The notes: generated by a model not told the origin, from the letters alone. A stretch of DNA of 64,000 nt from Desulfovibrio piger ATCC 29098 (GCF_000156375.1 NZ_DS996360.1:118487-182486), one strand, 5' to 3'; positions 40,649-57,376 are shown, counted from the first letter of the stretch. A program made the numbers and translations.

Positions 40649-40708
40649 TGGTACCCGGAGCCGGGCTTGAACCGGCACAGCCGGTGGCCGAGGGATTTTA
40701 AGTCCCTT
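40649..40708. repeat. attL: 60-bp copy of tRNA-Leu 3' part
   Basis: Sixty bases identical to 57291-57350, covering the tRNA from anticodon stem to CCA. The 5' part is absent, so it is not a functional tRNA. It marks the left end of the island. Confidence 0.95.
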
Positions 40709-40842: not shown

Positions 40843-40853
40843 GAGGTGCCGTC

Positions 40854-42077
40854 ATGGGAATCAAATGGTTTTCGGAGGGAAAAGGGATCCGCTACTACAA
40901 GCACCCCCAGAGGAAGTACGGGAAGAGACCAGACAGATACTACACGCTCGTTTACCGGTTAGAAGGGAAGATAAAAACAGAGAGCTTAGGATGGGAGAGT
41001 GAAAACAGGGTTCCCGGCGAAAGTATGCTGAAGAGAGCTCAACGTTTGCTGGCCATGCTTCGTGAAAACTGGCGTACAGGAAACGGGCCACAAACCTTGG
41101 CAGAGATGCGCCATCTCAACCAGCTTGAGAGAAAAAAGAAGCTGGCTCAGGAACAGATGGAAGCACGGCAGCTCGTTTCTTTAGATGCTTTCTTTGAACA
41201 AGAGTTCAAGCCTGTTGCTCAACGTAGCAAAAAAGCATCATCATATGAAAAAGAGTTTTCTTACTACCGAAACTGGATTATGCCAGTATTGGGAAAAAAA
41301 TCTTTGATACAGATTGATATGATGGATTGGGAACAGATATTGCAGCCTTTAGATAAAGCAAATCTTACTATTGCTACAAAGAGATATATTTATGGTACAT
41401 TGTGTCGAATTTTGAAATGCGCTAGAGATCGTGGGTTTGCAGTAACTATTCCATCAATGAAAAAACTAGGTTTATCAAATATAGGTAATAATAGGAGGAC
41501 ACGTGTTATTGAAGAATGTGAAATGGTAAAAATTCTTGATAATCTAAAGATGAGGGATATAAATGCTTATAATATTGTTGTATTCGGTGCTTTAACTGGG
41601 TGTAGATTTAGTGAAGCGGCAGGATTAAAATGGGGAGATATTACAGAAAGTGGAATTATATTCAAAAAAACTAAAAATAATGATTTACGTATTATTCCTA
41701 TATCAAATTCGCTTAAAACATTTCTAGAATCTCTTAATAGAAAGGAAAATCATGAAAATGTATTTTTGAATACAAGAGGTAAAATTTACAAAGAAGCCCC
41801 ACATTCTTTTAGACAAGTAGTTAAAGAGCTTAGTTTAAATGAAAACCGTGATAAACTCGATCGTATTTCCTATCATTCGCTGCGTCACACAGTTGCAACA
41901 ATGCTCTCGCAGGAGTTAGATATTCGTTCCCTTATGGATTTACTTGGTTGGAAGCAAGTTGCTATGCCTGCACGATATATGCACGGTAATGAAGAGAGAA
42001 AAATTGCAGCACTCAATAATGTTGGTTCTCTTGTTGAAAAGAAAAAGCAGGCGCACATTATTCAATTTACTGGATAG
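40854..42077 (+). CDS. int: Tyrosine recombinase (site-specific integrase)
   Basis: A 407-residue phage-type integrase that would insert and excise the island at tRNA-Leu(TAA). An N-terminal arm-binding domain and SAM-like core domain lead to the catalytic part, with Arg251 (TGCRFSEAAGLKW), Lys271-273 region, His341-x-x-Arg344 (YHSLRHTVATM), Trp366 and nucleophile Tyr375 (ARYMHG). All catalytic positions are present, so it is probably active. It lies 145 bp from attL and points into the island. The C-terminal half is AT-rich compared with the N-terminal half. Confidence 0.93.
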   Translation: MGIKWFSEGKGIRYYKHPQRKYGKRPDRYYTLVYRLEGKIKTESLGWESENRVPGESMLKRAQRLLAMLRENWRTGNGPQTLAEMRHLNQLERKKKLAQEQMEARQLVSLDAFFEQEFKPVAQRSKKASSYEKEFSYYRNWIMPVLGKKSLIQIDMMDWEQILQPLDKANLTIATKRYIYGTLCRILKCARDRGFAVTIPSMKKLGLSNIGNNRRTRVIEECEMVKILDNLKMRDINAYNIVVFGALTGCRFSEAAGLKWGDITESGIIFKKTKNNDLRIIPISNSLKTFLESLNRKENHENVFLNTRGKIYKEAPHSFRQVVKELSLNENRDKLDRISYHSLRHTVATMLSQELDIRSLMDLLGWKQVAMPARYMHGNEERKIAALNNVGSLVEKKKQAHIIQFTG

Positions 42078-43149: not shown

Positions 43150-43151
43150 TG

Positions 43152-43450: not shown

Positions 43451-43494
43451 AGTGTATTATTTTCTCAACTGATTTCTTGGAAAAATAAAGAAAA

Positions 43495-43794: not shown

Positions 43795-43885
43795 TGCCAA
43801 CCTCTATTGGCTTCTATGAGTGCCTCCGACAAAACGGATACTGAAAAGCCCATCAATAGGGGCTAAAATCAATTTTTTTTGTACT
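43795..43885 (+). ncRNA. Possible small structured RNA
   Basis: CCTCTATTG pairs with CAATAGGGG over 9 bp (one G-T), enclosing about 44 nt. AGCCC/GGGCT forms an alternative stem, then TTTTTTTT ends the element. A possible 14-residue frame (MPTSIGFYECLRQNGY) with an AGGAG site overlaps it. No known RNA family recognised. Confidence 0.3.
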
Positions 43886-44238
43886 AGTAATGGTAAGAGA
43901 GGGGGGAGTATATATATGGTAGATAGATAGGTGAATAGGGTAGATAGAGTAGGAGGAGGCGATGGTAGTTGGTTGTAGCATAGGTCTAGAGTAACAAAAA
44001 AAAGTATATAGGTGTATTTTTTAGGGGGGGATAAAAATTATTAGTATAAAAAAGCTTTTAGATGTATTATCTAAATAATATTTTTTTAATTAGGTATGAA
44101 AAAATAAAAATGTTTTTTTATAAACTTAACTTGTAATTTATAAAAATGAATTTGATAAAAATAGACAATAATAAGAAAAAATGATAAAAAATATATGTAA
44201 AATAAATATTATAATTCTTTACGATAAATTGTTGAATA

Positions 44239-45516
44239 CTATTTTTTCGAAATTCTCGGATAAGTTTTAAAAGTTTCATAAAATTCATTCATCATCAGTT
44301 GGCGAAGTAAATATTCATCTTTGCTGCTTGTTATAAAACTATCATGTATGCAGAGAGCACATTTACCATCTCGATAAAAATGAAGAAGAATTTTCTCGGC
44401 GATATTGCTTTCAAAATTTTGTAATTTTAATCCATAACTACTACAAAAATACTTTTGAATTGGGGCATGTCTTTTGAGTATCTTGTCAATAATATCAATA
44501 GACGGTACCTTTGGTTGATTCTCCGGCTGAGCATTATCATCTTCACTATATTTGTACTCATTGTCTCTGCGATATTTGTTGAGTGCTTGGACGGCCTTTG
44601 TTTTATCAGGTGCATTTATGGAAATATTGACGGCGCTTTTTATTACATTTCGTAGAGTTTTTGGTATTCCATCAAGTAAATATAAATCTGTCTCAGGAAG
44701 TTGTATCATCTCGATGGCGTATAACATCGAGAGATGAAGGCATGAATAATCCAGTTCTACTGTGTCTTCTCCATCAATTGTGATGTACTGCCTATATTTT
44801 GAGGGAATTCTTTGACTCCAGTGTGAGAAAAAGCGCCCACCTTCATTAAAGCTCCCATTATTGAAAACTCTCCTGTATTTATTCTCAAGTTCAATATTTG
44901 ATATATTTGTATTTGATTTCTTTATCTCATCCCAAAGAATCTCTGGATCAAGTTTTATAATATGTCTAGAGAGCATCTTGTTAATTCTATTTGTATTTAA
45001 AATTATGTTTTTTACCTGTTGATTGTCGCTATTATAGTTCATTTCATGCTTATCATTATCGCGTAAAATGACAGGGATATTCCGTTTTATAATTGTACCA
45101 GAATCACTTTTGTATTTTCTGAATAGTCTAAAAAGTTTTTCAGTTCCTTTGATTCGTGTCTGTCTCTTAGCTATATCAGAATTAAATCCTTTGTGCTGTT
45201 CTATGTATCCATGTGATTCGAGAACATCGAGAATATAAATTGTATATTTATATTGAAGGAATAGATTTTTTAGCCTTTTTAAATTTCTATAGCTGTTTTT
45301 AGAACGGCTGATAGCAATATATTTTGTTGGATCTTCTTGCTTTACAACAAATAGATCTGTTAATATTATGCGGAGATGGTATCTAAGTTTCTTTTTGGAT
45401 AGATTTTTTTGAGTGCTGAGAAATTTTTTGTCTATAAAGTTACATGCTTCTTTTACTTCTGGTTTGTTCGACCAAATCCAGATATCAAATGGACGCGAAT
45501 TGTCGAGTTTGTTCAT
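44239..45516 (-). CDS. Polymerase-palm-like protein (family A / T7-RNAP type motifs)
   Basis: A 425-residue protein of no family I can name. The C-terminal half shows three ordered motifs like those of family-A DNA polymerases and single-subunit RNA polymerases. Motif A is VELDYSCLHLSMLYA (Asp256). Motif B is R289-x3-K293-x3-N297 (RNVIKSAVNISIN). Motif C is CIHDSF (Asp392). A conserved-looking GGRFFSHWSQRIPSKYR segment precedes motif A. The N-terminal 200 residues are basic and helical. Start ATG at 45516 has AGGGGAAG 5 bp upstream; a longer open frame to 45777 is unlikely. AT-rich cargo, probably acquired. Function unknown; nucleic-acid synthesis or defence possible. Confidence 0.7.
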   Translation of the reverse strand: MNKLDNSRPFDIWIWSNKPEVKEACNFIDKKFLSTQKNLSKKKLRYHLRIILTDLFVVKQEDPTKYIAISRSKNSYRNLKRLKNLFLQYKYTIYILDVLESHGYIEQHKGFNSDIAKRQTRIKGTEKLFRLFRKYKSDSGTIIKRNIPVILRDNDKHEMNYNSDNQQVKNIILNTNRINKMLSRHIIKLDPEILWDEIKKSNTNISNIELENKYRRVFNNGSFNEGGRFFSHWSQRIPSKYRQYITIDGEDTVELDYSCLHLSMLYAIEMIQLPETDLYLLDGIPKTLRNVIKSAVNISINAPDKTKAVQALNKYRRDNEYKYSEDDNAQPENQPKVPSIDIIDKILKRHAPIQKYFCSSYGLKLQNFESNIAEKILLHFYRDGKCALCIHDSFITSSKDEYLLRQLMMNEFYETFKTYPRISKK

Positions 45517-45877
45517 TATCTTCCCCTGCGATTTTTTTCTTACGACTTTTTGCCGTGGAATATAGGTATAACTCCTATCAGGCCATGTCGCGTATACATC
45601 ATGTTCTGCCGGGGAATATATCGATTTGTGCCGACACAGTGTATCTTTAGAAAAGCTTCTCCTTTGGCTGGGCCGGTTCGAGACCGATAGGCCAACGTCC
45701 CATCCATAATCTCCCCCGGAAACAGGGGGTGATCTCCACTTGGGAGGACATTCAAAAGGCTGACAACTGACCATCATATTTTATCATCTATCTTCATAAA
45801 CCTTCATCGCGTGTGAATCTTTTTATTCAGTTGCATGGAGATTTTTGTAACTTACTGATAATATTTGAATAAAAAAT

Positions 45878-45947
45878 GATTCTAAGCGAGTTTCAGCAAG
45901 GAAGATGGCTCAATGGTCATCAGCATGCTGTTTGAAGGCTTAGAATC
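45878..45947 (-). other. Perfect 10-bp inverted repeat with T-rich exit
   Basis: GATTCTAAGC (45878-45887) and GCTTAGAATC (45938-45947) enclose 50 nt that contain a further CAGCATGCTG palindrome. On the minus strand the stem is followed by ATTTTTTATT, as in a terminated small RNA. It lies upstream of the polymerase-palm gene. Confidence 0.4.
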
Positions 45948-45966
45948 AAAGTATGAGGGCTTTTAG

Positions 45967-45989
45967 AATCATACTTTTATAGTATGATT
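45967..45989. promoter_or_regulatory. Dyad AATCATACT-N5-AGTATGATT
   Basis: Perfect 9-bp inverted repeat with 5-bp spacer. A good size for an operator of a dimeric repressor, or a weak hairpin. The half-site repeats at 45941-45955 (AGAATCAAAGTATGA). Confidence 0.45.
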
Positions 45990-46166
45990 TTGGTGCATCT
46001 TGCACTATGTCCGACAGGCGTCCCTATATATTTATTAAAAAAATTTTTATACAGTAAATTTACATGGGTACAAAAAAATTAAGATTTTCATATAGAAATA
46101 GGTTAGCTCTTGACTCAAAACAGCAAACCCGGAATAAGCTGGAGGATCATCCCCAGGAGGAATACG

Positions 46167-46712
46167 ATGATCCCGATTTTCGCATCGCTGCCAGAGTCCT
46201 CTCAAACGAAAGCGGTCATGGAATATCTTTACGAGCTTGGCAATAGACGGGAGTGGAATGAGCTGGAGAAGGTGCTGCACGAGATTCTGTCTTGCAACGG
46301 CTTTCATAAGCTGAAAGCCCAGGCTTTGGAGTATGCTGTTTTTATGGGCCTTCAGAGGAAGGAGCAACGGCAAGCCCTTGGATACTACCATGATCTTTGC
46401 CGTCTTGAAGATGATTGTGGGCCTTTTCGCACTCAGCGGGCACAGGCCGTCGCATATCTGGTGCGGCTGTTTGAAAATTCTCCACAAAGTGTGCTTGTGC
46501 CGTGGTGTGAGCTCGTATGTGAAGACCTTCCTCCATTCGCACAGTATCTTTGTGGGCGTAGTGGCCTTTTTTTATTGAAAAATCTTTGCAAAAACAGAGA
46601 GTTGACGAGCGCTTGTGTCGTGTTCAGGCTTTTTAAGCGTTTACCCGTCCGTATATGCGACACATATCTGCGCGAGGCCAAGGTCATTCTTCAGAGGCAG
46701 AGGGAGCGTTAA
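46167..46712 (+). CDS. Helical hypothetical protein
   Basis: Unrecognised 181-residue protein, all helix by eye, with repeated hydrophobic-helix spacing (EYLYELGNRREWNELEKVL; YAVFMGLQRKEQRQALGYY) resembling TPR-type repeats. It has seven cysteines. The ATG at 46167 has AGGAGG 6 bp upstream; the frame is open from 46110. Its last 29 bp overlap the convergent XRE gene. Confidence 0.6.
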   Translation: MIPIFASLPESSQTKAVMEYLYELGNRREWNELEKVLHEILSCNGFHKLKAQALEYAVFMGLQRKEQRQALGYYHDLCRLEDDCGPFRTQRAQAVAYLVRLFENSPQSVLVPWCELVCEDLPPFAQYLCGRSGLFLLKNLCKNRELTSACVVFRLFKRLPVRICDTYLREAKVILQRQRER

Positions 46713-46953
46713 CAAGGCGTTGGCATTCCCTGTCAATCAGCGTGACCATGTAGCCGGGCGAAATACCAAAAGCTTGCGCGAGCAAAAAAATTGCGTTCAG
46801 TGTTGGTCGATACTTTTTTTGTTCGATCTGCAACAAATAAACGCGGTCGATTGTCGTGAGGAGCGCCAGCTTGCGCTTGCTCAGGCCTGCATCTTCCCGT
46901 AGGCGAGTCAGCACGTTGGCTACGGCCTCGGTGAGTTTGGGGTAATCTTCCAT
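46684..46953 (-). CDS. Small XRE-family HTH protein
   Basis: An 89-residue DNA-binding protein with the Cro/C1 HTH at residues 14-66 (LREDAGLSKRKLALLT; FLLAQAFGISPGYMV). Likely a regulator of island genes. An AAGG site precedes the ATG. Overlap with the convergent helical protein gene is unusual but both have good ribosome sites. Confidence 0.7.
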   Translation of the reverse strand: MEDYPKLTEAVANVLTRLREDAGLSKRKLALLTTIDRVYLLQIEQKKYRPTLNAIFLLAQAFGISPGYMVTLIDRECQRLVNAPSASEE

Positions 46954-47058
46954 CCAGCCTTACTATCAGGATGGATTGCATTATGTGCAGTGCTGGTATA
47001 CTAAACAATTATATGCAAAATTTTTGGGCTGTTTTCTGGCGTGCCCGGGAGGACAAGT

Positions 47059-48474
47059 ATGGAAAAGCGTATTAAGATGTATAATCCAAAAACAGGTAAA
47101 TCAAAAAATGGATTTATTGGCTTTAGTTGGCCGATTTTGTTTTTGGCATGGATTCCTATGTTTGCGCGCGGTGATATCAGGAGTGGTCTTGAGTTAATTG
47201 CTGTTCAGTTAGGTTGTTTGGCTATTCAGTCTTGTGGATTTCAATCATTTTATTTGATATTTATAGTTATTCAGGTTATGGTAAGTATTTCTTATAATAT
47301 TTATTATACAAAAGGATTGATACGCAAAGGATTTCTTTTTAATGATACAGATGTATTGAATGGAATTGGAGCTAAGACTGTTGGTATTTCTGTTAAAAAT
47401 TGTGTTTTTTACCAAAATGGTACGAGTAATATAGATGATAATTCAGATGATATTGATGGTAGACAATGTTCGGATATGAATAAACTCGAAGATGAAAATG
47501 TCGATAAGATGAAAAAATATAGCACGCGTAATCTGGATGATAATTCAGATGATATTGGGAGTAGGCATTGCTCGGATATAAATAATTTTGAAGATGAAAA
47601 TGTTGATAAGCCGATATCATCTTTGGCTGTAAGGAAAATCAGCAAACTCTCATCTTCAGAGATACAAAAATATGGAGCCATATTTTTTTTGACGATATCA
47701 GCTGTACTTGGATATGTAGAATATTCTTATACTGATACTATATTTTACGTTGTTGAAATCGAAAAAAAACTTTCCCTTGAGCCTACTCTTATAACTACTC
47801 TTTTTTCTTTTATTTATATAATGACAATGACTATTCGTGTAAAATCTGAAATTATATTTTGCAAAGAGAATAGAACCGTAGGTTATTATATTTCGGAATG
47901 GATACTATTGGTGTTATCTGTTTTAGTTACGGCTATGTTTTTCTCTATATTTACTAATTCATGTAAATCAGATGTATTATCTTTTGCTGATATTCATGGT
48001 ATTACTGGAAAGCATTTGCTGTTAGCAGCAGTTATGTTTTCATTTGTAGGTGCGAGAAGCTTGGCTGGTTTCATATGGATTGCCGTAATCTTTGTGGGGA
48101 TTTCTAATGCGATTGATGCTGATAAAGCTATGGGGATATTTGGTGTAATTTTTGCCATCTGTTCTATTCTTGGATTGTCTTTGCAGTTCATTAGATTGTA
48201 TGCCGATCAATTTGGAGCGATGATAAAATCTGATTTTATGGGGGCAAGAACTATTATCTCTGGAGATGTTGCAGAAGCTAAAAATGTTGCTGGAGCCATT
48301 GCAAAGCAGGCTGTAAATATTGGTAAGACATATGTAAATCCTGAAATTGCAATTGCACATAACGCAATTGGTTGTAAACAAAGAAAGAAAAATTCTCCTG
48401 AGGAAAAAGTTGTTGATTTGTCAGATTATAAAAATAGAAATAATAGGAAACGATTAATTCATAAGAGAAAATAA
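47059..48474 (+). CDS. Membrane protein with duplicated acidic repeat
   Basis: A 471-residue membrane protein of unknown role. It starts with a conserved-looking NGFIGFSWPILFLAWIPMF segment of the DUF2628 kind and a second helix. Two copies of a 25-residue Asp/Asn-rich unit follow (DDNSDDI...EDENVDK) encoded at 47434-47508 and 47536-47610. About six more helices and a basic tail end it. The ATG at 47059 has GGAGG 7 bp upstream. GC is low, consistent with transfer. Confidence 0.6.
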   Translation: MEKRIKMYNPKTGKSKNGFIGFSWPILFLAWIPMFARGDIRSGLELIAVQLGCLAIQSCGFQSFYLIFIVIQVMVSISYNIYYTKGLIRKGFLFNDTDVLNGIGAKTVGISVKNCVFYQNGTSNIDDNSDDIDGRQCSDMNKLEDENVDKMKKYSTRNLDDNSDDIGSRHCSDINNFEDENVDKPISSLAVRKISKLSSSEIQKYGAIFFLTISAVLGYVEYSYTDTIFYVVEIEKKLSLEPTLITTLFSFIYIMTMTIRVKSEIIFCKENRTVGYYISEWILLVLSVLVTAMFFSIFTNSCKSDVLSFADIHGITGKHLLLAAVMFSFVGARSLAGFIWIAVIFVGISNAIDADKAMGIFGVIFAICSILGLSLQFIRLYADQFGAMIKSDFMGARTIISGDVAEAKNVAGAIAKQAVNIGKTYVNPEIAIAHNAIGCKQRKKNSPEEKVVDLSDYKNRNNRKRLIHKRK

Positions 48475-48584
48475 AGGATATGAGGTAGTCGTAACTTATT
48501 TATAGCATTGATGTCTTTATAGCTATCTAAAAAAGCATCGAACGTGTTTATTTGACGCACTCGAAAAGTTTTTCAGGAGGTTTT

Positions 48585-49547
48585 ATGTTTCATATACTCG
48601 ATTTTATTGATTCTAAGGATATTCGAGAACATAATGCAAATACGCAGTTTACACCAATGGAACAAGCAGTGCTCATTTATCATAGCTGCCGCACAACCGT
48701 TGATGATAAAATGACAGCTTGGCGTGAATTACTGGAGCGTTACGGAGAGAATGATTTTAAGATACTCAATTATGGAGAGAGACAGTTCGTAAGACGAAGC
48801 AACCGTCAGTTGGTGGAAGATACCGTTCGGCAGTATGAAGCTGCCCTTTCCAGTAGATATACTGCTTCCAATGTAATCTTTGCAGCCAGTTTTGAGGAAA
48901 TAGGACATCCACGATCTGACGAACTTTCCTATTTTACTGATTATGACTCTGCTTTTGCTTTCATCGAAGCTGAAAAACAGAGGTATTTGGATAATGATTA
49001 TCTAAAGGATGTCCCGACAAAGGCGCGCATTTCCATTGTTCCACTGAATGAAAAAAATCGTCGAGACAGTACTTGGTTTGACTTCGATACGGATTTGCGA
49101 ATGACCGGATTATATCCATGCCATTCCAGCGACGAAGACGGAATGGATAACGAAGATCTGGATATGGCATATATCTATGTACCTGTTCCGTTTAAGAAGG
49201 GCGATATTTTAAAAACTATTAACCCAAACTACAAAACCGACTATGGTGTTTTGCCGAGGGATAGCATTTGCCCTTGGTGGTGTGAAACAATGGGTGATTC
49301 TTCTGATATGATAGTTATGCTAGATTGTTATGACTACGAAGAAAATTTATTCGACTATTATGATGATTGCGAAATTCTGGAGTTGGAGAAATGCTCTTGG
49401 TCTGAATTGCCAAAGGAAGAAAAAATACTAATTTTATTAAGTTGCGTTTATCAGGATAAAATGGAAGCTGGGCAGATGCTCTATTACTATTCCAAGTTTG
49501 GAAGAAAAGCATATGATGAAATCGCCGCATACTTGAAAGAAGAATAG
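48585..49547 (+). CDS. Acquired hypothetical protein, tandem copy 1
   Basis: A 320-residue protein whose start, MFHILDFIDSKDIREHN then FTPMEQAVLIYHS, resembles a large unnamed family common on mobile elements of gut Firmicutes. It is acidic, with repeated Asp/Tyr motifs (YFTDYDSAFAFIEAEK) and no catalytic motif I can identify. GGAGG precedes the ATG. The next gene is a near copy (about nine of ten residues by eye). Cross-phylum transfer is inferred from family habit and the low GC. Confidence 0.65.
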   Translation: MFHILDFIDSKDIREHNANTQFTPMEQAVLIYHSCRTTVDDKMTAWRELLERYGENDFKILNYGERQFVRRSNRQLVEDTVRQYEAALSSRYTASNVIFAASFEEIGHPRSDELSYFTDYDSAFAFIEAEKQRYLDNDYLKDVPTKARISIVPLNEKNRRDSTWFDFDTDLRMTGLYPCHSSDEDGMDNEDLDMAYIYVPVPFKKGDILKTINPNYKTDYGVLPRDSICPWWCETMGDSSDMIVMLDCYDYEENLFDYYDDCEILELEKCSWSELPKEEKILILLSCVYQDKMEAGQMLYYYSKFGRKAYDEIAAYLKEE

Positions 49548-49549
49548 AT

Positions 49550-49635
49550 GTGTTAACTAAATAAAGATGTTATATATTTCAAGCTTCCATTGACATCGAA
49601 TATTGCAAAATATAACATCATTATTTAGTTAGCAC
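49550..49635. repeat. 25-bp inverted repeat between tandem copies
   Basis: 49550-49574 and 49611-49635 are inverted copies matching in 23 of 25 bases, separated by 36 bp. The left arm recurs after copy 2 near 50634-50660. It can form a long stem after copy 1 and may be a terminator or the trace of the duplication. Confidence 0.6.
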
Positions 49636-49663
49636 GCTCGAAAAAAATTTTTCAGGAGATTTT

Positions 49664-50629
49664 ATGTTTCATATACTCGATTTTATCGATTCTAGGGATA
49701 TTCGAGAGTATAATGCAAATACGCAGTTTACACCAATGGAACAAGCAGTGCTCATTTATCATAGCTGCCACAGAACCGTTGATGATAAAATGACAGCTTG
49801 GCGTGAATTACTGGAGCGTTACGGCGAGGATGATTTTAAAATACTCAATTATGGAGAGAGACAGTTCGTAAGACGAAGCAACCGTCAGTTGGTGGAAGAT
49901 ACCGTTCGGCGCTATGAAGCTGCCCTTTCCAGTAGATATACTGCTTCCAATGTAATCTTTGCAGCCAGTTTTGAGGAAGTAGGATATCCAGAACCGGACG
50001 AACTTTTCTATTTTACTGATTATGACTCTGCTTTTGCTTTCATCGAAGCTGAAAAACAGAGCTATTTTGATGATGAGGATATAAAGGATGTCAAGACCAA
50101 GGCGCGCATTTCCATTGTTCCACTGAATGGAAACAATGGTCGAGAGAGTCATACTTGGTTTGATTTCGATACGGATTTGCGAATGACCGAATTATTTTCA
50201 TGCTATTCCGGCGACGAAGACGGAATGGATAACGAAAATCTGGATATGGCATATATCTATGTACCTGTTCCGTTTAAGAAGGGCGATATTTTAAAAACTA
50301 TTAATCCAAACTTCGAAACCGGCTATGGTGTTTTGCGGAGGGATAACATTTACCCTTCGTGGCGTGAAACAATGGGTGATTCTTCTGATATGATAGTTAT
50401 GCTAGATCATTATGACTACGAAGAAAATTTATTCGACTATGGTGATGGTTGCAAAATTCTGAATTTGGAGAAATGCTCTTGGTCTGAATTGCCAAATGAT
50501 CAAAAAACACTAATTTTATTAAGTCTCGTTTATCAGGATAAAATGGAAGCTGGGCAGATGCTTTATTACTATTCCAAGTTTGGAAGAAAAGCATATGATG
50601 AAATCTCCGCATACCTGAAAGAAGAATGA
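49664..50629 (+). CDS. Acquired hypothetical protein, tandem copy 2
   Basis: A 321-residue near copy of the previous protein. Differences cluster around residues 100-180 (FEEVGYPEPDELFYF, QSYFDDEDIKDVKTKA). The unit upstream and downstream of the gene is duplicated too (about 1.08 kb). Both copies keep full frames and ribosome sites, so both are probably expressed. Confidence 0.65.
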   Translation: MFHILDFIDSRDIREYNANTQFTPMEQAVLIYHSCHRTVDDKMTAWRELLERYGEDDFKILNYGERQFVRRSNRQLVEDTVRRYEAALSSRYTASNVIFAASFEEVGYPEPDELFYFTDYDSAFAFIEAEKQSYFDDEDIKDVKTKARISIVPLNGNNGRESHTWFDFDTDLRMTELFSCYSGDEDGMDNENLDMAYIYVPVPFKKGDILKTINPNFETGYGVLRRDNIYPSWRETMGDSSDMIVMLDHYDYEENLFDYGDGCKILNLEKCSWSELPNDQKTLILLSLVYQDKMEAGQMLYYYSKFGRKAYDEISAYLKEE

Positions 50630-50699
50630 GTGTGTTAACTAAATAAAGATGTTATATCTTTCAGATTCAATTGACATGGAATCTGGTAAAAAAGTGCCA

Positions 50700-51080
50700 T
50701 TGTAAGGTCTATCATTTCAAGAGTTTTAGATACGACTGTTGATTTCCTCCTGAAACTCGCAAACCAATGCCTCTATCTTCCGTTGTTCTGCTCAAGGTAC
50801 ACAGTTTGTGATCTGCTCTGAATGTGTTTTTGCAAATAATTTTATCAACTTCAAAACAGCAGTCGGAGAAACCCCAATGAGCCTTACGATAGCCAGTATT
50901 GAAAGACCCTTGTACAAGGTTACACTGCCATAGCCTTTTCTTGTACAGGCCGGCCACGAGGAGTCAGTCTCGTAAATTGCAAGGAGCAAATTGCATTTAT
51001 ATCTTTGTTTTCCTAGAGCTTTTCCATTCTTGACGACTTGCGGTGATTGACATTTAGAGCATGGCGTTTTTCGTTCATGT
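50700..51080 (-). pseudogene. Decayed IS1/IS1595-like transposase
   Basis: On the minus strand from about 51077 the first part reads TPCSKCQSPQVVKNGKALGK with a CxxC zinc-finger start, then QRYKCN. A second frame holds TRLTPRGRPVQEKAMAV, and a third continues as LYKGLSILAIVRLIGVSP, TAVLKLIKLFAKTH. This is the zinc-finger plus HTH start of an IS1- or IS1595-type transposase broken by frameshifts. The catalytic part is lost. Confidence 0.6.
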
Positions 51081-51166
51081 AATCTTATCGCACATAAATG
51101 TCGTGAAATTATTAGGTTATTAACATACTCGAAATATTTACTAAAGATATAATCGTAATTTTCGTT

Positions 51167-51196
51167 AAAAAAGTCCCGGCGATTAGCTGGGACTTT
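51167..51196 (-). terminator. Terminator of the six-gene operon
   Basis: AAAGTCCCAGC / GCCGGGACTTT stem followed by TTTT on the minus strand, 40 bp past the ERF stop. Confidence 0.85.
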
Positions 51197-51235
51197 GTTT
51201 TTACTGTAACTGTAACCTCATGCAAACAATGATTT

Positions 51236-51946
51236 TTATGCTAATTTATAACTGTGCAGAGTCCGCATAAAGTTACGCAAGGTAAGCGGTTCTTTTTTGC
51301 AGCGTTCCAGGTGGTCTTTTTGCTCGCTGTAGACTTCGGAGGGAAGCCTGTCGGGAGCGCAACCATACTGGTCTTGCAAGTATGCACGGTAACAATGTGT
51401 CAATTCCGCCAGTCCCAGATCAGCAAGGAGTGCGCTGAGGGAAGGGCGGTTTTGAACGTTTGCCTGTACCGGAGCTGCGGCCTGTTTTCTGGATGCCCCA
51501 ACGGGGTGTGATGTCCGTCTTTTGGGCGATGGCTCCATAATATTACAGGCAGCATTGCCATCATCATCTTCTTCGGGAAGGATACCCAGCATCGCGGAAA
51601 GTGCGTACCTTCTTCCGTAGGTGATGGCACTTCCCATTGCTTGGGGATCATGTTTGGCTAGCGGGATAACCGCTAATGAAGCCTGATATTGTCCACTTTT
51701 TGCGTGGACGAGCTTGGTGACAAGACCGAGATACTCTCCTTCCACGGGAACAGGATACTGGGTAAGCAGTACGTCGTGTTCGATAAGAGCATTTCGGCAA
51801 GCGTCCATGATACTTCCCAACGATGCGTAGGAGTTATGAACGAAGGGGTTAACGGCATCCTTGAGCGCGGGTTTCAAATCTTTTTGTACCGCAATCAGGG
51901 CTTTTGAAAGCTCCGTGATTTCGGCGGAACAGAATGCATAATCCAT
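51236..51946 (-). CDS. ERF-family single-strand annealing protein
   Basis: A 236-residue phage-type recombinase that anneals complementary single strands. The ERF core holds ITELSKALIAVQKDL, NPFVHNSYASLGSIMDACR, and ITYGRRYALSAMLGILPEEDDDGN, the last being the family signature. A Pro/Arg-rich linker and small C-terminal domain follow. The ATG at 51946 has AGGAAGGATC upstream; the longer frame to 52198 is shadow. With the RecB-like nuclease gene 11 bp upstream it forms an exonuclease-annealase pair like Red or RecET. Confidence 0.88.
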   Translation of the reverse strand: MDYAFCSAEITELSKALIAVQKDLKPALKDAVNPFVHNSYASLGSIMDACRNALIEHDVLLTQYPVPVEGEYLGLVTKLVHAKSGQYQASLAVIPLAKHDPQAMGSAITYGRRYALSAMLGILPEEDDDGNAACNIMEPSPKRRTSHPVGASRKQAAAPVQANVQNRPSLSALLADLGLAELTHCYRAYLQDQYGCAPDRLPSEVYSEQKDHLERCKKEPLTLRNFMRTLHSYKLA

Positions 51947-51957
51947 GCTGATCCTTC

Positions 51958-52737
51958 CTAAGCGGTATGTTGTGGGGAAAAGCATAGTTTCTGATACATA
52001 CACCATCCGCAATGGAGCCCCCTGTTTTTCCAGAACAATCCGTGTCGTATCGCTTTGACGATACTGGATATTTCCTGATATGCGGCCATAAAGTCCGGCA
52101 TGGAGCGTTCTGAATGCAGCCAGACAACCTTGAGCTCCTTTGTACGAACAAGGTACAGGAAGCTGACCGGTATGGAGATCTGGAAGCCGAAGGTGCACGC
52201 CATCAGATAGGCGTAGACCGTCAGTTCAAGGGCACGATTGGCTTGTTCTTCATGGGGAGACTTGGCCGAAGTCTTGATATCGATGATTCGCGTGATGTCT
52301 TGGGCGGGAGCATCAATGATGTCCGCGTAACCACGCAAGATGACGCTGTGATCGACTTCCCCGGTTGCGGGATGTACCAGTGGATGCTCAAAGTACGTTT
52401 CCATCTGGTATGTGTTCAAGCCGCCGATCATTTCAAGAAATCTCGTTGCTTCACTCAGGATTTTTCGTTCCGCAGCTTCCAGTTTTTCAGCACTGGAATA
52501 TTCCGTAGCTTCAAGCTGGACGGATGACCAAAATTCCTTGGAGGCTTCTTCCGCCATGTTGGGAATGGCTTTGCCATATACCAGGCAATTTTCCACAATA
52601 TGGTGGAGTGCCGAACCTTCTATGAGCGCAACAGGCGTTTTTTCTACGAGAATTTTCTCGATATAGGTGAGCCTGAATTTTTCCGGGCACTGGCAGTAGG
52701 TATTGAGGCGTGATTTTGAAAGCAGCAGAGGTTCCAT
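51958..52737 (-). CDS. RecB-like PD-(D/E)XK nuclease with Fe-S cysteines
   Basis: A 259-residue RecB-family nuclease that would resect double-strand ends for the ERF protein. Key positions: His45 (GSALHHIVEN), Asp139 (RGYADII), Asp153-x-Lys155 (IIDIKTS) and a later Tyr (LTVYAYL). Cys15 plus Cys243, Cys246 and Cys252 (CGWCMYQKLC) match a Cas4/AddB-type 4Fe-4S cluster. The ATG at 52737 has GGAGG 6 bp upstream. Confidence 0.85.
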   Translation of the reverse strand: MEPLLLSKSRLNTYCQCPEKFRLTYIEKILVEKTPVALIEGSALHHIVENCLVYGKAIPNMAEEASKEFWSSVQLEATEYSSAEKLEAAERKILSEATRFLEMIGGLNTYQMETYFEHPLVHPATGEVDHSVILRGYADIIDAPAQDITRIIDIKTSAKSPHEEQANRALELTVYAYLMACTFGFQISIPVSFLYLVRTKELKVVWLHSERSMPDFMAAYQEISSIVKAIRHGLFWKNRGLHCGWCMYQKLCFSPQHTA

Positions 52738-52810
52738 ACTCCCTCCTGCGTAGTGGCGGGAGGGATGTCCCGCCACCACGGTAAAATGGTAACGGGCTTT
52801 AAGCCTTCAA

Positions 52811-53695
52811 CTAGGCTGCGAAGCGCAACCTGCGTCGAGGCAGGTCTTCAAGAGATGCGTCAATGCCGGTCAGCAATTTTTCCATCTGTTGATGGAGCTC
52901 TTGCCTGACCTGGGTGTTACCCCTGATGGCGTTTGCGTTGGTGTTGGTAATAATTCCTCGGCATTGCTCAACAAGTTCAGACAGTTGTGCATCATCGAAG
53001 ATGTTTCTGCTGCTGAAGTTGTCGAGGAACTGTTTGAGGTTTTCAACAGCCGCGTCGCGTAACCTTCTCGGCTTGCCATCATCATGATTTTGCAGCTTAT
53101 CAGCGATGTTGGTAACAAGGTCGACAAATTCTTCACGCAAAGCCGTGATCGCCTCACTGCGCGCTTGCTCCATGAGTTCTTGAAACTTCTTTACTTCTTC
53201 CTTGTAGATGGAGGGAGGCAAAACTCGTGAAACGGATGGGCCTATCGTGATATATCGCCACTGGAAGCGGAATTTATTTTTGATCATTTCCTGTGTCGGG
53301 TAGTCACATTCGTCGAAGAGTTCTCCAAGGGAGTCTTTGGCATCTTTGACCGTCTGGGGATACCAGTAGAGGAAGTCCTCGACAGCACTATTATAATGCC
53401 ACTTGATCTCCTTCAGGTGTTCCTGAATCTCAGGGATCAGCTTTTTCGGCACCAGAACACAGCCTTTGATGGGGAAGGGCAAGGAGATCTTTCGAAGATA
53501 ATTTCTTGCTTTTCCGATGTGTTGCTTGATGAGAGCCGTAGAGTCTGGGGCGAGGAGCAGTTTTCGTCCTCGCAGGAAATCAACATTCCCGACATCGGCC
53601 AACATGGATTGCGGCAATTTTTTATCCAACTGCCAACATGTGGCCGTCAGCTGAAGTAAGGCTGCTTCCCGAAACATGTTTTCAGCAGTGACCAT
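52811..53695 (-). CDS. DUF3150 protein
   Basis: A 294-residue helical protein of a phage- and island-borne family. The middle (residues 90-170) is rich in aromatic positions (KWHYNSAVEDFLYWYPQTV). The C-terminal half is a helical bundle with a basic end (RRRLRFAA). No enzyme motif is seen. It is fourth in the operon; partners are often AAA ATPases. Confidence 0.7.
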   Translation of the reverse strand: MVTAENMFREAALLQLTATCWQLDKKLPQSMLADVGNVDFLRGRKLLLAPDSTALIKQHIGKARNYLRKISLPFPIKGCVLVPKKLIPEIQEHLKEIKWHYNSAVEDFLYWYPQTVKDAKDSLGELFDECDYPTQEMIKNKFRFQWRYITIGPSVSRVLPPSIYKEEVKKFQELMEQARSEAITALREEFVDLVTNIADKLQNHDDGKPRRLRDAAVENLKQFLDNFSSRNIFDDAQLSELVEQCRGIITNTNANAIRGNTQVRQELHQQMEKLLTGIDASLEDLPRRRLRFAA

Positions 53696-53709
53696 TGGAA
53701 GGAGCTCCC

Positions 53710-53907
53710 TTATGCCTTGTTGCAGGTGATGACTTTCTTCATCTCGGTATAGGGGATAAAGGCCGTCGGTTTCATTTTGATAAAAGTTTCTTCGCCGAGA
53801 AGGTCTTTCATGAACTTTGTGGCCTCGACGCAGGACTTTCCCGGAAAACCGTATGTGGACATTTCGACACGACCATCAGCGGTCACGGTTATCTGAACAA
53901 TTTTCAT
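53710..53907 (-). CDS. DUF2997 small protein
   Basis: A 65-residue protein with the family motif YGFPGKSCVEATKFMKDLLG in its middle. It lies between Ycf35-like and DUF3150 genes with gaps of 9 and 14 bp. In cyanobacteria and phages this family commonly accompanies Ycf35-like proteins. Function unknown. Confidence 0.75.
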   Translation of the reverse strand: MKIVQITVTADGRVEMSTYGFPGKSCVEATKFMKDLLGEETFIKMKPTAFIPYTEMKKVITCNKA

Positions 53908-53916
53908 AAGTTACTC

Positions 53917-54339
53917 CTACAAGGTGATCGTCAGTTCGATACCGCTGTTAACTTGTTTTTCGTTATAGCTATAACGCTTTTTGCGCACAGCTTCCTTGAT
54001 GACTTCGACACCGTAGGCCTGTTTCAGAAGGCCGCCATTTTCCCCTATAGCCCTTTTGAGTTTGCTGTCCCAAAAGTCGCAGAGCAGCATGTAGCTGCCG
54101 TTCCTTTTGATAATGCCTATTTCATAACGTGCATTGGGGATCTGGATGGCGTGGTCACAATGACCAAGTTCTTCTTCCGTGATACCAGGGGGCAGAGGGT
54201 ATTTCTCAGGTTCAACGAGTTTGCCGTACCAGATGTATGTTTTTTGGTTTTCCATGAAGCGGAATCCCATACGGCTACAGGCACGCTTGATAGCACTAAG
54301 ATCGTAGATCTTGAGCTGGATGTGCGAAACGTGTGACAT
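53917..54339 (-). CDS. Ycf35-like DUF1257 protein
   Basis: A 140-residue protein related to chloroplast/cyanobacterial Ycf35. MSHVSHIQLKIYDLSAIKRAC is the family start, followed by CDHAIQIPNARYEIGIIK and LLCDFWDSKLKRAIGENGG. No catalytic residues are evident. Gap to the AAA gene is 8 bp, so they are co-translated. Confidence 0.8.
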   Translation of the reverse strand: MSHVSHIQLKIYDLSAIKRACSRMGFRFMENQKTYIWYGKLVEPEKYPLPPGITEEELGHCDHAIQIPNARYEIGIIKRNGSYMLLCDFWDSKLKRAIGENGGLLKQAYGVEVIKEAVRKKRYSYNEKQVNSGIELTITL

Positions 54340-54347
54340 TTCATCTC

Positions 54348-55799
54348 CTAATGTGTAGAGGTTGATGGTACAAATGGCGGTGTAGTCATGATTGTTGTGC
54401 GACGTATTTTCCGCTTTTCACTATGTTGTTCGTCAGGAGTATTTGCAATTCTGGCTCTAGAACGAGCCCATTGGCGTAGATGTTCGATATCTTCTTTCAT
54501 AGTTCTTGAGAGAGGAATGAAAGATTTTAGAGCTACTTCGAGTCCGTCAAACAACGAATCTCTGATTATCTGCTCAATTTCTGATCCAGTGTAACCATTC
54601 AGGTTATCTGCCCATTCGACAGGCATTGATGTGCCATATTTGCGATTCATTATTTGTATAATTTCCATTCGTTCACTTCGAGATGGAAGGTCAACAAACC
54701 AGATAGCATCAAATCTGCCAGCCCGAAGAAATTCAGGCGGTAATTCTGTGATGTTGTTCGCAGTGGCTACAATAAAGGCAGATTTTTGCTCATTGGCCCA
54801 TGTTAAGAAATGCGAGAACATTCCCATCGTGGTACCTGAGTCATTGAGTCCTCCACTTTTGGTTCCAGAAAACATTTTTTCCAGTTCATCAAGAAAGAGA
54901 ACGCAATTTCCGAAAGCATCAATAATTTTGGTAGCTTCACGCATCCGTCGTTCTGATTCACCGACAAGGGCATTTTTCAATGCACCGATGTCGAGACGGA
55001 TGAGCGGGAACTGGAGCATGGAGGCTATGGAACAAGCAGTTTTGCTCTTTCCCGTACCCGGCACACCAACCAGCAAGATACCTTTAGGTTTCGGTAAGCT
55101 GGAATGAAGCTGATAGGCTTTGGATCGATTGATGACATACTCTTTGAGCGGGGATAGGCCACCGACATCAGCGATATCCGCAGCGGGATAAATCTCTAAC
55201 AGGCCAGACTTTTTTATCATCTGGGCCTTTGCTTCGGTGATGCTCTTTGAGCTGAAGTAGCCTTTTTTGATCAGGCTGAGAGAGTAGGCTGTTTCAGCCT
55301 GAAATTCGGTCAACCCTGTAGCGAGCCGTGCGGCTTTTCGGTTTGGCCGAATGTTATGAGGTTCACCCAAATCTGTTTGCAGGCGATATAGCGCCTCTTC
55401 ATCTGGCAGCTTTACTTCCACGAGGTGGAAGAATGGTTGAAGTGCTTGCGGTAAGGTGGGGGTAGGTGCGATGACAGCGAGACAATTTCCAAGGCTTTTG
55501 TATAGAGGAATGGCGTTCAGGACTGCTTGACAGACCATAGGGTCGTCCAGAAACGTGGATAAGCCATGACAGATGAGAAGCGTGTCCTTCGTAGTGGTAA
55601 GCCACGAGATCGCTTCAACAGGATTTTGAATTTCCTCATAGTGAAATAATTGCGGGGAAAATCCCCGGATACCTTGCAGACAATCCCATCTGGCAATCTG
55701 CCAGCCAGTTATTGCACGAAGCTCTTCCTCAGTTCTATGTGGTTCAAAAGTTTGGAGTAAAACCGTCGGAAAACCAGCTTTAAGAAGGTTTGTAATCAT
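54348..55799 (-). CDS. Ycf46-like AAA+ ATPase
   Basis: A 483-residue AAA+ ATPase first in the operon. The C-terminal AAA domain has Walker A GVPGTGKSK (245-253), Walker B LFLDELEK (301-308), sensor Asn348-349 and Arg finger region RAGRFD (359-364). Its N-terminal half (residues 1-200) is the diverged second domain of the Ycf46 type. ATG at 55799 has AGGAGG upstream; an open extension to 55874 lacks one. The C-terminal tail is basic and Thr/Pro-rich. Hexamer remodelling a partner such as the Ycf35-like protein is inferred. Confidence 0.85.
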   Translation of the reverse strand: MITNLLKAGFPTVLLQTFEPHRTEEELRAITGWQIARWDCLQGIRGFSPQLFHYEEIQNPVEAISWLTTTKDTLLICHGLSTFLDDPMVCQAVLNAIPLYKSLGNCLAVIAPTPTLPQALQPFFHLVEVKLPDEEALYRLQTDLGEPHNIRPNRKAARLATGLTEFQAETAYSLSLIKKGYFSSKSITEAKAQMIKKSGLLEIYPAADIADVGGLSPLKEYVINRSKAYQLHSSLPKPKGILLVGVPGTGKSKTACSIASMLQFPLIRLDIGALKNALVGESERRMREATKIIDAFGNCVLFLDELEKMFSGTKSGGLNDSGTTMGMFSHFLTWANEQKSAFIVATANNITELPPEFLRAGRFDAIWFVDLPSRSERMEIIQIMNRKYGTSMPVEWADNLNGYTGSEIEQIIRDSLFDGLEVALKSFIPLSRTMKEDIEHLRQWARSRARIANTPDEQHSEKRKIRRTTIMTTPPFVPSTSTH

Positions 55800-55861
55800 G
55801 TAAAATCCTCCTAAATTTATATTTCTATATACAAGGAGAGATTTTGCAATTTTAGAAGAGC

Positions 55862-55890
55862 AAAAAAAAGCCACCGATTTCTCGGTGGAC
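55862..55890 (-). terminator. Terminator upstream of the six-gene operon
   Basis: CCACCGA-GAAA-TCGGTGG followed by a T run on the minus strand. It ends transcription of the two small HTH genes, so the AAA operon needs a promoter within 55800-55860. Confidence 0.8.
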
Positions 55891-55901
55891 TCATATTGGG
55901 A

Positions 55902-56114
55902 TTAGCTTTGCCGTGCTGCCAGCCAATCTAAAAAGTCGTTTCGTGCATATACGACTTTACGGCCGACATAATGTTTTTTGGGGCCTTGCCCTAAAGAATC
56001 TAAGTTGGCGAGGTATCTAGGAGAGATTAGATTCCCAAAATAATGGGCAATATCTCGACGTGTCAGTATCGGAGGAACCTGCGATGCCAGCTCAGAAAAA
56101 AGATGCTCGGACAT
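55902..56114 (-). CDS. Excisionase-like HTH protein
   Basis: A 70-residue MerR/AlpA-type helix-turn-helix: LTRRDIAHYFGNLISPRYLANL, then HYVGRKVVYARNDFLDWLA. Proteins of this kind serve as excisionases or activators of island integrases. Located near the right end of the island, it is the best candidate for directionality factor. AGGAAG lies before the ATG. Confidence 0.7.
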   Translation of the reverse strand: MSEHLFSELASQVPPILTRRDIAHYFGNLISPRYLANLDSLGQGPKKHYVGRKVVYARNDFLDWLAARQS

Positions 56115-56125
56115 ATCACTTCCTC

Positions 56126-56482
56126 CTAAGCATCATTTTGGCATGTGGCCTCATCTTCACTACTGGGTGCCTCTGGGGTGATGCGTACAGTACCTCCTTG
56201 AACACTGACGTGAACCGATGTCCCTTGAGAAAAAATTTCCGCGAGCCCGTGCTCTGCAAAGAAGGCGGCAGGGATGGTCAGGCCTTTTGCGGTAACGCGG
56301 CAAGGAGATTTGCGTGGAATTCTGGGGACGAATTCTTTTTCCTCCCCCAGCCGAGCATACGCTGTTGCGAATTGGGCCGGGGTAATGCCCAACTCACACA
56401 TGATGTCTTCGCGGGTTTTTCCTGCGCACAGGGCTTGGTAGAGTGTTTCTCGGTCAGTGGCTGTCATACGTTTCATGAGCAT
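56126..56482 (-). CDS. Small regulator, HTH plus AbrB-like strand region
   Basis: A 118-residue protein. An N-terminal helix-turn-helix of the resolvase kind (DRETLYQALCAGKTREDIM, ELGITPAQFATAYARLG) is followed by a swapped-hairpin-like stretch, CRVTAKGLTIPAAFFAEHG and SVHVSVQGGTVRITPE, similar to AbrB/MazE DNA-binding folds. Start could be 56482 or the Met at 56476. It precedes the excisionase-like gene by 11 bp in the same unit. Confidence 0.55.
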   Translation of the reverse strand: MLMKRMTATDRETLYQALCAGKTREDIMCELGITPAQFATAYARLGEEKEFVPRIPRKSPCRVTAKGLTIPAAFFAEHGLAEIFSQGTSVHVSVQGGTVRITPEAPSSEDEATCQNDA

Positions 56483-56862
56483 AAGTCCTTGTGTTTGGTG
56501 ACCTCCAAAAATTCGGGTACGTTATCGGGAAAATGCATTGGCCTAAATGTATTACCAAGGGGCTAACCGTGTAAAACGGAACCTACACAGAGATATTACA
56601 TCTTACCGGTCTGGGGGGCAAGAACTTTTTTATGAAATTGGGGGCCTCTTTGGGGGGCATCTCTGTTGCACCGCGTACGGTCTGAAATGCTCCAAGGGGT
56701 GCTATCGCATCGCACTTGTCGAACAGATGGGCCACGCCATAGTGATTCCATAGCGTTGATTCCTTCATCTGAAAGAAGTAGAGTATATGTGTTACGTGGT
56801 TTTCTTCCCATGCGTTCGGTACGACGCAAAATCCCGCTTTACGGGTAAGGGAGGTTAGCTGC

Positions 56863-56934
56863 ATGAGACGCATTCTGCTTCTGGCGCTGCTGACGCTCCT
56901 TTGTCTGATGCTCCGGGCTTCGTCCCGGCTGTAA
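56863..56934 (+). CDS. Possible 23-residue hydrophobic peptide
   Basis: MRRILLLALLTLLCLMLR then ASSRL: basic start, one membrane helix, basic end, with GGGAGG 9 bp upstream. A 12-bp hairpin begins 11 bp after the stop, then a terminator. Size and layout recall type I toxin peptides, but no antisense RNA is proven. It may also be a chance frame. Confidence 0.35.
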   Translation: MRRILLLALLTLLCLMLRASSRL

Positions 56935-56945
56935 CCAAAACAAAG

Positions 56946-56975
56946 GCCCCCGTCCGGCGGGCACCGGGCGGGGGC
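56946..56975 (+). other. 12-bp GC hairpin after the small peptide
   Basis: GCCCCCG-T-CCGG / CCGG-G-CGGGGGC. No T run follows, so it may stabilise the mRNA. Confidence 0.55.
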
Positions 56976-57029
56976 TAAAAACTATGCGGTTAGCCATGTA
57001 ACGCTAAGGGGACGCTATCGCGTCGTACC

Positions 57030-57069
57030 TGCCGGGAGAGTGTTGGCGCATTCTCCCGGCACCTTTTTT
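57030..57069 (+). terminator. Intrinsic terminator near the island right end
   Basis: TGCCGGGAGA / TTCTCCCGGCA hairpin followed by CCTTTTTT. Confidence 0.75.
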
Positions 57070-57213
57070 ATAAGCCTTTCTTAAAAGGAGTGCAAGTCGT
57101 TCAGCGGCCTCGTAGCGTGCTGAGGTTGATGCTTGAAACGTACGTTGGAAATTTTTGAGTGTGCTGCAAAGTTGGAGGCTGAGGGGGCGCGGGGAAAAGT
57201 TCAAGGTGCAGTT

Positions 57214-57232
57214 GTTGTAAAATAGTTGTAAA
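57214..57232 (+). promoter_or_regulatory. Integrase arm-site-like repeat, right
   Basis: GTTGTAAAA-T-AGTTGTAAA, same orientation and spacing as 40824-40842, 58 bp from attR. Confidence 0.6.
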
Positions 57233-57290
57233 AAATACGAAACAAAAAAAGCGGCTACAGAATCTAAATCTGTAACCGCTTGATATTGTT

Positions 57291-57350
57291 TGGTACCCGG
57301 AGCCGGGCTTGAACCGGCACAGCCGGTGGCCGAGGGATTTTAAGTCCCTT
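57291..57350. repeat. attR: 60-bp repeat within tRNA-Leu
   Basis: Identical to 40649-40708. It bounds the island on the right; crossover is in or near the anticodon stem-loop. Confidence 0.95.
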
Positions 57351-57376
57351 GTGTCTACCAATTCCACCATCCGGGC
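57291..57376 (-). tRNA. tRNA-Leu (anticodon TAA), restored by the island
   Basis: Complete 86-nt gene on the minus strand: acceptor stem GCCCGGA/TCCGGGT, discriminator A plus encoded CCA, anticodon loop CTTAAAA (TAA), long variable arm of class II, and TTCAAGC T-loop. Its 3' 60 bases come from the island's own attachment copy. Confidence 0.96.

What the first reader, a model, noticed from the sequence alone, without database searches (positions are those of the whole stretch)
51236..55799. Ycf46-AAA / Ycf35 / DUF2997 / DUF3150 operon fused to a RecB-ERF recombination pair
Six genes on one strand with gaps of 8, 9, 14, 73 and 11 bp combine proteins otherwise known from chloroplast and cyanobacterial genomes (Ycf46, Ycf35) with a phage exonuclease-annealase pair. 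Functions of four of the six are unknown. Co-transcription suggests an AAA ATPase that remodels a complex made of the small proteins, perhaps linked to DNA-end processing. This is the strongest candidate in the window for an undescribed system.
Basis: partly seen in the sequence, partly recalled or inferred. Interest (0 to 1): 0.85.

Follow-up and report, generated by a model that had tools for sequence, protein, structure and literature searches.

The report
AAA machine with swappable partner genes
A small mobile DNA element integrated in a bacterial chromosome carries a six-gene unit whose AAA motor protein and two small partners form a very widespread but functionally undescribed trio found in bacteria, phages, plasmids and cyanobacteria, here joined to a DNA-recombination pair through a protein that elsewhere serves a different AAA motor.

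Summary
All six genes exist at the stated coordinates and gaps, on the minus strand. They lie between two predicted terminators inside a 16.6-kb integrative element (40649-57290) in tRNA-Leu, with exact 60-bp att repeats, an integrase and an empty site in a relative. No phage structural genes were recognised in it.

The co-occurrence is not chance. AAA, DUF1257-like and DUF2997 form a conserved trio across bacterial phyla, phages, cyanobacteria and the IncC plasmid backbone (574 plasmids). DUF3150 is an interchangeable extra. In a phylum-wide sample it sits 10 times with this trio, 11 times with a MoxR/CobS-type AAA (mostly plus a vWA, CobT-like protein), and never with both. This host has one of each, both beside an ERF annealase.

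Best reading: an AAA+ protein-remodelling machine whose adaptors are DUF1257 and DUF2997, with DUF3150 linking it to recombination or replication complexes. The gene partnership is well supported; the client is inferred. I found no paper describing the trio as one system. 'Ycf46' orthology was not shown and Pfam DUF1257 membership is not strictly met. The recombination link is strong in this genus and patchy elsewhere.

The parts
40649..40708 (.). left attachment repeat (60 bp, identical to the 3' part of tRNA-Leu)
   Evidence: exact 60-bp direct repeat within an 82-bp repeat at 90%; single copy at the empty site in relative G006
40854..42077 (+). tyrosine recombinase (integrase) of the element
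   Evidence: PF00589 81.8 bits; phrog_1 integrase E 3.7e-45
51170..51196 (.). predicted terminator just downstream of the ERF gene, T-runs on both sides
   Evidence: 11-pair stem, scan (8 found, 5.7 expected by shuffling, so weak alone); sequence
51236..51946 (-). ERF-family single-strand annealing protein
   Evidence: PF04404 101.6 bits; phrog_2324 E 1.7e-39
51958..52737 (-). PD-(D/E)XK (RecB/Cas4-type) nuclease with C17 and C243-x2-C246-x5-C252, the layout of a 4Fe-4S nuclease
   Evidence: PF12705 83.5 bits; phrog_69 exonuclease; cysteine positions
52811..53695 (-). DUF3150 protein
   Evidence: PF11348 42.1 bits, cut-off 24.9; model mean pLDDT 88 with no clear PDB match
53710..53907 (-). DUF2997 protein with near-invariant G23-x2-C26
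   Evidence: PF11211 36.8 bits, cut-off 24.1; conservation over 113 sequences
53917..54339 (-). DUF1257 (Ycf35)-like protein with a strongly conserved MSH N-terminus
   Evidence: PF06868 19.1 bits, below cut-off 22.2; matches annotated DUF1257 proteins by sequence search
54348..55799 (-). classical AAA+ ATPase (SpoVK/Ycf46/Vps4-like) with intact Walker A/B, sensor-1 and arginine fingers after a poorly conserved N-terminal half
   Evidence: PF00004 84.6 bits; motif positions; invariant columns in 13 diverse homologues
55871..55888 (-). predicted terminator between the upstream small gene and the AAA gene, so the six genes probably start their own transcript
   Evidence: CCACCGAGAAATCGGTGG then T-run
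55902..56114 (-). small AlpA/excisionase-like gene (weak assignment, by sequence appearance), also upstream of the operon in relatives
   Evidence: phrog_7338 E 0.002, unknown function; homologues upstream of the operon in three relatives
57291..57350 (.). right attachment repeat, inside tRNA-Leu(TAA) 57291-57376 (-)

Best explanation
The six genes are one transcription unit of a 16.6-kb integrative element. Shown by sequence and context: an AAA+ protein with intact ATPase motifs and two small proteins (DUF1257-like, DUF2997) form a conserved gene trio, and DUF3150 joins either this trio or a MoxR/CobS + vWA pair but not both in one place. Inferred: the AAA protein assembles into a ring that pulls on or remodels a client; DUF1257 and DUF2997 act together as its adaptor, as vWA proteins do for MoxR ATPases; DUF3150 is a mobile-element adaptor or client that brings the machine to DNA recombination or replication complexes, here those made by the 4Fe-4S-type nuclease and the ERF annealase. 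The likely net effect is loading, recycling or disassembly of the recombination complex during excision, replication or transfer of the element.
For: AAA motifs intact: Walker A 245, Walker B 301, sensor-1 and Arg fingers near 345-364, pore-type LVGESE 278. Trio conserved: of 160 AAA-anchored loci, 80 have both DUF1257 and DUF2997 within 5 kb, all on the same strand. From an independent DUF2997 anchor, 20 of 20 sampled places have the AAA and 18 of 20 have DUF1257. DUF1257-DUF2997 fusions in three viral contigs. In cyanobacteria all 25 genomes with DUF1257 also have the AAA, against 8 of 24 without (Fisher 2e-7), and 17 genomes have an AAA gene next to a DUF1257 gene. Partner exchange of DUF3150: 11 with MoxR/vWA, 10 with the trio, 0 with both, 3 unassigned on contig ends or short contigs; the tree forces at least 2 changes. 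Recombination link: six-gene order kept in five genomes of the genus including the host; ERF beside the other cassette type in the same host (L222) and in four further loci of the genus; RecB/Rad52 beside further copies of both types; UvsX/UvsY, RusA, ParB and DNA polymerase genes near viral copies.
Against: No physical interaction was tested. Recombination genes recognisable with my seeds lie within 5 kb of only 11 of 69 trio-type and 6 of 24 MoxR-type DUF3150 loci (overlapping sampling), so the recombination client may be special to some elements. Many trio copies have no DUF3150 at all. DUF1257 and DUF3150 models have no clear structural relatives. The fused model did not resolve DUF2997.
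Confidence: 0.45

Rival explanations
1. The AAA trio is a metal, Fe-S or radical-enzyme activation system (a cofactor chaperone), and its place beside recombination genes is secondary; its client could be the 4Fe-4S-type nuclease or a host enzyme.
For: Near-invariant cysteine in DUF2997. NrdG-like radical-SAM activases adjoin the AAA in 17 loci, 15 of them with DUF2997 and none with DUF3150. Cyanobacterial DUF2997-ycf35-fed7 cluster (PMC4284462). MoxR/vWA relatives NorQD insert iron (PMC9976466 abstract). The nuclease here has Fe-S-type cysteines.
Against: The NrdG-like gene is absent from the window operon and from every DUF3150 locus in that set. Viral DUF3150 loci lie among replication and recombination genes.
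Confidence: 0.22
2. The six genes share a transcript only because the element's genes are packed together; the AAA group works on something unrelated to recombination.
For: The trio occurs in many places without recognisable recombination genes, including bacterial chromosomes and cyanobacteria.
Against: Exact six-gene order kept in other genomes of the genus (AAA 73-82% identical) with different flanks. DUF3150 lies beside ERF/Rad52/RecB in both cassette types.
Confidence: 0.2
3. The AAA group is an anti-phage defence or counter-defence module, or a toxin-antitoxin-like pair as in SGI1 sgiAT or IetAS.
For: AAA similarity to IetA (PADLOC E 1.3e-15) and the mobile-element setting; the SGI1 sgiAT operon has an AAA antitoxin of the SpoVK/Ycf46/Vps4 superfamily (PMC10954446).
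Against: No protease, nuclease toxin or other effector next to the trio. The NCBIfam IteA model scores 56 against a cut-off of 510. PADLOC gave no hits for DUF1257 or DUF2997 and only weak ones for DUF3150. Carried by lytic phages, IncC plasmids and cyanobacterial chromosomes alike.
Confidence: 0.1

Closest known systems
MoxR AAA+/vWA systems (CbbQ-CbbO, NorQ-NorD, CobS-CobT)
   Same: AAA+ ATPase encoded with dedicated non-ATPase partners on one strand; DUF3150 is shared with the mobile-element CobS/CobT-like version.
   Different: AAA here is of the classical clade (PF00004), not AAA_5/MoxR; no vWA protein; DUF1257-like and DUF2997 stand in its place.
Phage and archaeal-virus 'cobST' gene pairs (PMC8651126)
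   Same: AAA plus partner cassette widespread in tailed viruses, function unproven.
   Different: Those are read as cobaltochelatase subunits. DUF3150 between CobS-like and CobT-like genes (L222, L223, L226) and its sharing with the Ycf46-type trio make a non-cobalamin role worth testing.
Plastid/cyanobacterial Ycf46 and Ycf35
   Same: Same protein families at superfamily level; cyanobacteria in the sample keep DUF1257 only together with the AAA, one copy adjacent; ycf35 and ycf46 losses both track habitat in red algal plastids (PMC5940233).
   Different: Strict orthology of the window AAA with Ycf46 not shown; cyanobacteria hold two or more paralogues.
Phage SSAP-exonuclease modules (lambda Red, ERF/RecB, SXT bet-exo)
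   Same: Adjacent annealase and PD-(D/E)XK nuclease.
   Different: Here preceded in the same unit by the AAA trio and DUF3150, an arrangement found complete in this genus and less completely in other elements.

Membership tests
Classical AAA+ ATPase | Walker A, Walker B, sensor-1, arginine fingers in PF00004 | tested here: met
   84.6 bits over cut-off 21.2; motif positions and invariant columns
Ycf46 (orthologue) | closest relation to plastid/cyanobacterial Ycf46 rather than to paralogues | tested here: inconclusive
   35% identity to a Leptolyngbya AAA; cyanobacteria have two or more paralogues; no plastid reference sequence was available
DUF1257 / Ycf35 (PF06868) | Pfam gathering score | tested here: not met
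   19.1 bits against 22.2; therefore called DUF1257-like
DUF1257 / Ycf35 (PF06868) | homology to annotated members by sequence, and gene position | tested here: met
   matches annotated DUF1257 proteins in L023, L024, L027, L030
DUF2997 (PF11211) | Pfam gathering score | tested here: met
   36.8 bits against 24.1
DUF3150 (PF11348) | Pfam gathering score | tested here: met
   42.1 bits against 24.9
MoxR/vWA system | AAA_5/MoxR-type ATPase plus vWA protein | tested here: not met
   window AAA is PF00004 type (PF07728 16.9 bits, below cut-off 22) and no vWA protein was found in the operon
ERF single-strand annealing protein | PF04404 over cut-off | tested here: met
   101.6 bits against 25
Cas4 (CRISPR) | TIGR00372 equivalog score | tested here: not met
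   31.2 bits against 65
IetAS defence system | IetA equivalog score and S8 protease partner | tested here: not met
   56.1 bits against 510; no protease gene in the operon
Complete prophage | structural and packaging genes within the att sites | tested here: not met
   eight other element genes searched in PHROGs gave integrase and unknown families only; not every small ORF was searched
tRNA-integrated mobile element | att repeats, integrase and an empty site in a relative | tested here: met

The most novel reading that the evidence does not exclude
AAA + DUF1257 + DUF2997 is a general, previously unrecognised AAA+ activase machine that parallels MoxR/vWA systems. It would explain plastid Ycf46 and Ycf35 as two parts of one machine, and it is directed to different clients by exchangeable extras: DUF3150 for recombination or replication complexes on mobile elements, and NrdG-like proteins for radical enzymes. 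On this reading many phage 'CobST' cassettes are not cobaltochelatases but DUF3150-linked remodelling machines.
Probability: 0.3. Interest if true: 0.82.

Novelty: new variant of a known kind. Interest (0 to 1): 0.62.

Why it matters
It ties three unknown families, two of them linked to long-standing orphan plastid genes (ycf35, ycf46), into one testable AAA+ complex. It puts the same unsolved complex on IncC resistance plasmids, phages and integrative elements. It offers an alternative to the cobaltochelatase reading of phage cobST genes, because DUF3150 is shared between both cassette types.

Tried and rejected
SXT/IncC parallel: I expected DUF3150 beside bet/exo/cobS on SXT and IncC elements. 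A tblastn search with a MoxR-type DUF3150 matched plasmids of Burkholderia, Cupriavidus and similar genera and no enterobacterial one, and the 377-aa gene after DUF2997 on IncC plasmids has no DUF3150 similarity (hhalign probability 0.8%), so that parallel is not claimed. Structure searches of DUF3150 (Foldseek E 0.38 at best; VIA Z up to 9.3 to helical bundles, within the range of common arrangements) and of the DUF1257-DUF2997 fusion (best PDB Foldseek E 0.027; VIA Z up to 5.2) gave no usable fold match; the only significant BFVD match was one unnamed viral protein, 33% identical. Aligning DUF2997 singles with the fused proteins failed, so DUF2997 was not modelled well. A viral scan for more fusions found only the query's own contig. 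A viral scan from the DUF3150 alignment could not run because no conserved stretch was found. A defence reading was considered and rated low. Literature searches found no paper treating DUF3150, DUF2997 and DUF1257 together as a system; the library lacks most subscription journals and bioRxiv.

Full report
CHECK. ERF, PD-(D/E)XK, DUF3150, DUF2997 and AAA pass Pfam cut-offs; DUF1257 falls short (19.1 against 22.2 bits), but sequence searches from it reach proteins annotated as DUF1257, so I call it DUF1257-like. The nuclease has C17 and C243-x2-C246-x5-C252, as in 4Fe-4S nucleases of the AddB/Cas4 type (family knowledge). A predicted terminator lies on each side of the six genes, at 55871-55888 and 51170-51196, which fits one transcript; such matches are weak evidence alone.

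CARRIER. A 60-bp exact repeat at 40649-40708 and 57291-57350 coincides with the 3' part of tRNA-Leu(TAA). A tyrosine recombinase lies beside the left copy. In the complete genome of relative G006 the two flanks are continuous with a single copy of the repeat. The operon therefore sits in a 16,642-bp integrative element. No structural phage gene was recognised among the element genes searched.

SAME GENUS. Four of 100 relatives searched carry all six genes in the same order (AAA 73-82% identical in three of them) with different flanks. In G002 the AAA gene holds an in-frame stop.

WIDE SURVEY. From AAA-anchored scans of bacterial genome contigs and viral contigs I built profiles of each family and counted neighbours within 5 kb. 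In 80 genome loci, 40 have DUF1257, 44 DUF2997, 34 both and 8 also DUF3150; in 80 viral loci, 50, 47, 46 and 36. All neighbours counted were on the AAA strand. These loci were chosen by the AAA, so I repeated the survey with other anchors in 297 genomes of the host phylum. DUF2997 is in 35 genomes; the 20 places fetched all have the AAA and 18 have DUF1257. DUF3150 is in 19 genomes at 24 places. Of these, 10 adjoin the trio, 11 adjoin a MoxR/CobS-type AAA (AAA_5, mostly with CbbQ_C) and, where not interrupted, a vWA/CobT-like gene, none adjoin both, and 3 lie on short contigs or near contig ends without a recognised partner. A DUF3150 tree needs at least two partner changes, fewer than any of 500 label shuffles. 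The trio also lies on Manganitrophus, Paenibacillus and Paenarthrobacter plasmids and in Rhizobium and Pseudomonas phages. On IncC-type plasmids the three-gene DNA is present over at least 80% of its length in 574 records.

CYANOBACTERIA. Among 49 genomes of the phylum, all 25 with DUF1257 also have the AAA; 8 of the other 24 do (Fisher 2e-7). In 17 genomes an AAA gene lies within about 600 bp of a DUF1257 gene, and a second, more conserved AAA paralogue stands elsewhere. Published data show that ycf35 and ycf46 losses both track habitat in red algal plastids (PMC5940233), and that Synechocystis clusters DUF2997, ycf35 and a ferredoxin gene (PMC4284462). Ycf46 is linked to CO2 utilisation in Synechocystis (Jiang et al. 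2015, known here only from its citation in PMC7283877).

CONSERVED RESIDUES AND FUSIONS. DUF2997 has near-invariant G12, G23 and C26; DUF1257 has a strongly conserved MSH start and Y109. Three viral contigs encode DUF1257 and DUF2997 as one protein, which suggests physical association. AlphaFold gave a confident DUF3150 model (pLDDT 88) and a confident DUF1257 half, neither with a clear relative of known structure.

RECOMBINATION LINK. ERF, RecB-type nuclease or Rad52-type genes recognisable with my seeds lie within 5 kb of 11 of 69 trio-type and 6 of 24 MoxR-type DUF3150 loci (some loci are sampled twice). The host itself has both: the window operon, and an ERF / MoxR-AAA / DUF3150 / CobT-like set on another contig (L222). 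Neighbours of viral copies include ParB-like proteins, UvsX, UvsY, RusA and DNA polymerase. A different accessory, an NrdG-like radical-SAM activase, adjoins the AAA in 17 loci, 15 with DUF2997 and none with DUF3150.

MECHANISM. Shown: motifs, gene trio, partner exchange, element boundaries. Inferred: AAA ring; DUF1257/DUF2997 as adaptor; DUF3150 as link to recombination complexes. The analogy is to MoxR/vWA machines such as CbbQO and NorQD (PMC4660213, PMC9976466). This may work like such machines but is not a member: the AAA type differs and the vWA protein is absent.

VERDICT. A real, widely conserved, functionally undescribed AAA system, in a variant that joins it to a recombination pair. 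The most informative new point is the exchange of DUF3150 between two AAA cassettes.

Noticed in passing
   Followed up: yes
G000:C42:312000-328000 (locus L222): The same host carries a second DUF3150 locus: ERF, 421-aa unknown, MoxR/CobS-like AAA, DUF3150, CobT/vWA-like. Such cassettes are elsewhere called cobaltochelatase genes.
   Followed up: partly
48552-50629: Tandem duplicated genes (331 and 321 aa, blocks 93-94% identical in DNA) of no known family, inside the element.
   Followed up: no
44239-45777: 512-aa protein of unknown phrog_4756 (E 4.9e-61), also near the operon in relatives L015 and L016.
   Followed up: no
42157-43149: Transposase_31 (Rpn/YhgA-like) gene next to the integrase.
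   Followed up: no
50712-51090: Minus-strand remnant that by eye resembles an IS1-type InsA; not tested.
   Followed up: no
L017 (G002:C25), 2872-4334: The operon of this relative has an AAA gene with an in-frame TGA and an incomplete DUF3150, so a decaying copy.
   Followed up: partly
L022, L048: Related AAA proteins lie beside VgrG/baseplate or prophage-tail genes, hinting at a separate group in contractile injection loci.
   Followed up: no
L031 9629-11789: IncC plasmid backbone carries AAA, DUF1257-like and DUF2997 genes (574 plasmid records); function unknown.
   Followed up: partly
L183 12089-12922 and relatives: A 277-aa family with no Pfam or NCBIfam match lies directly after the AAA gene in 16 loci.
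   Followed up: no
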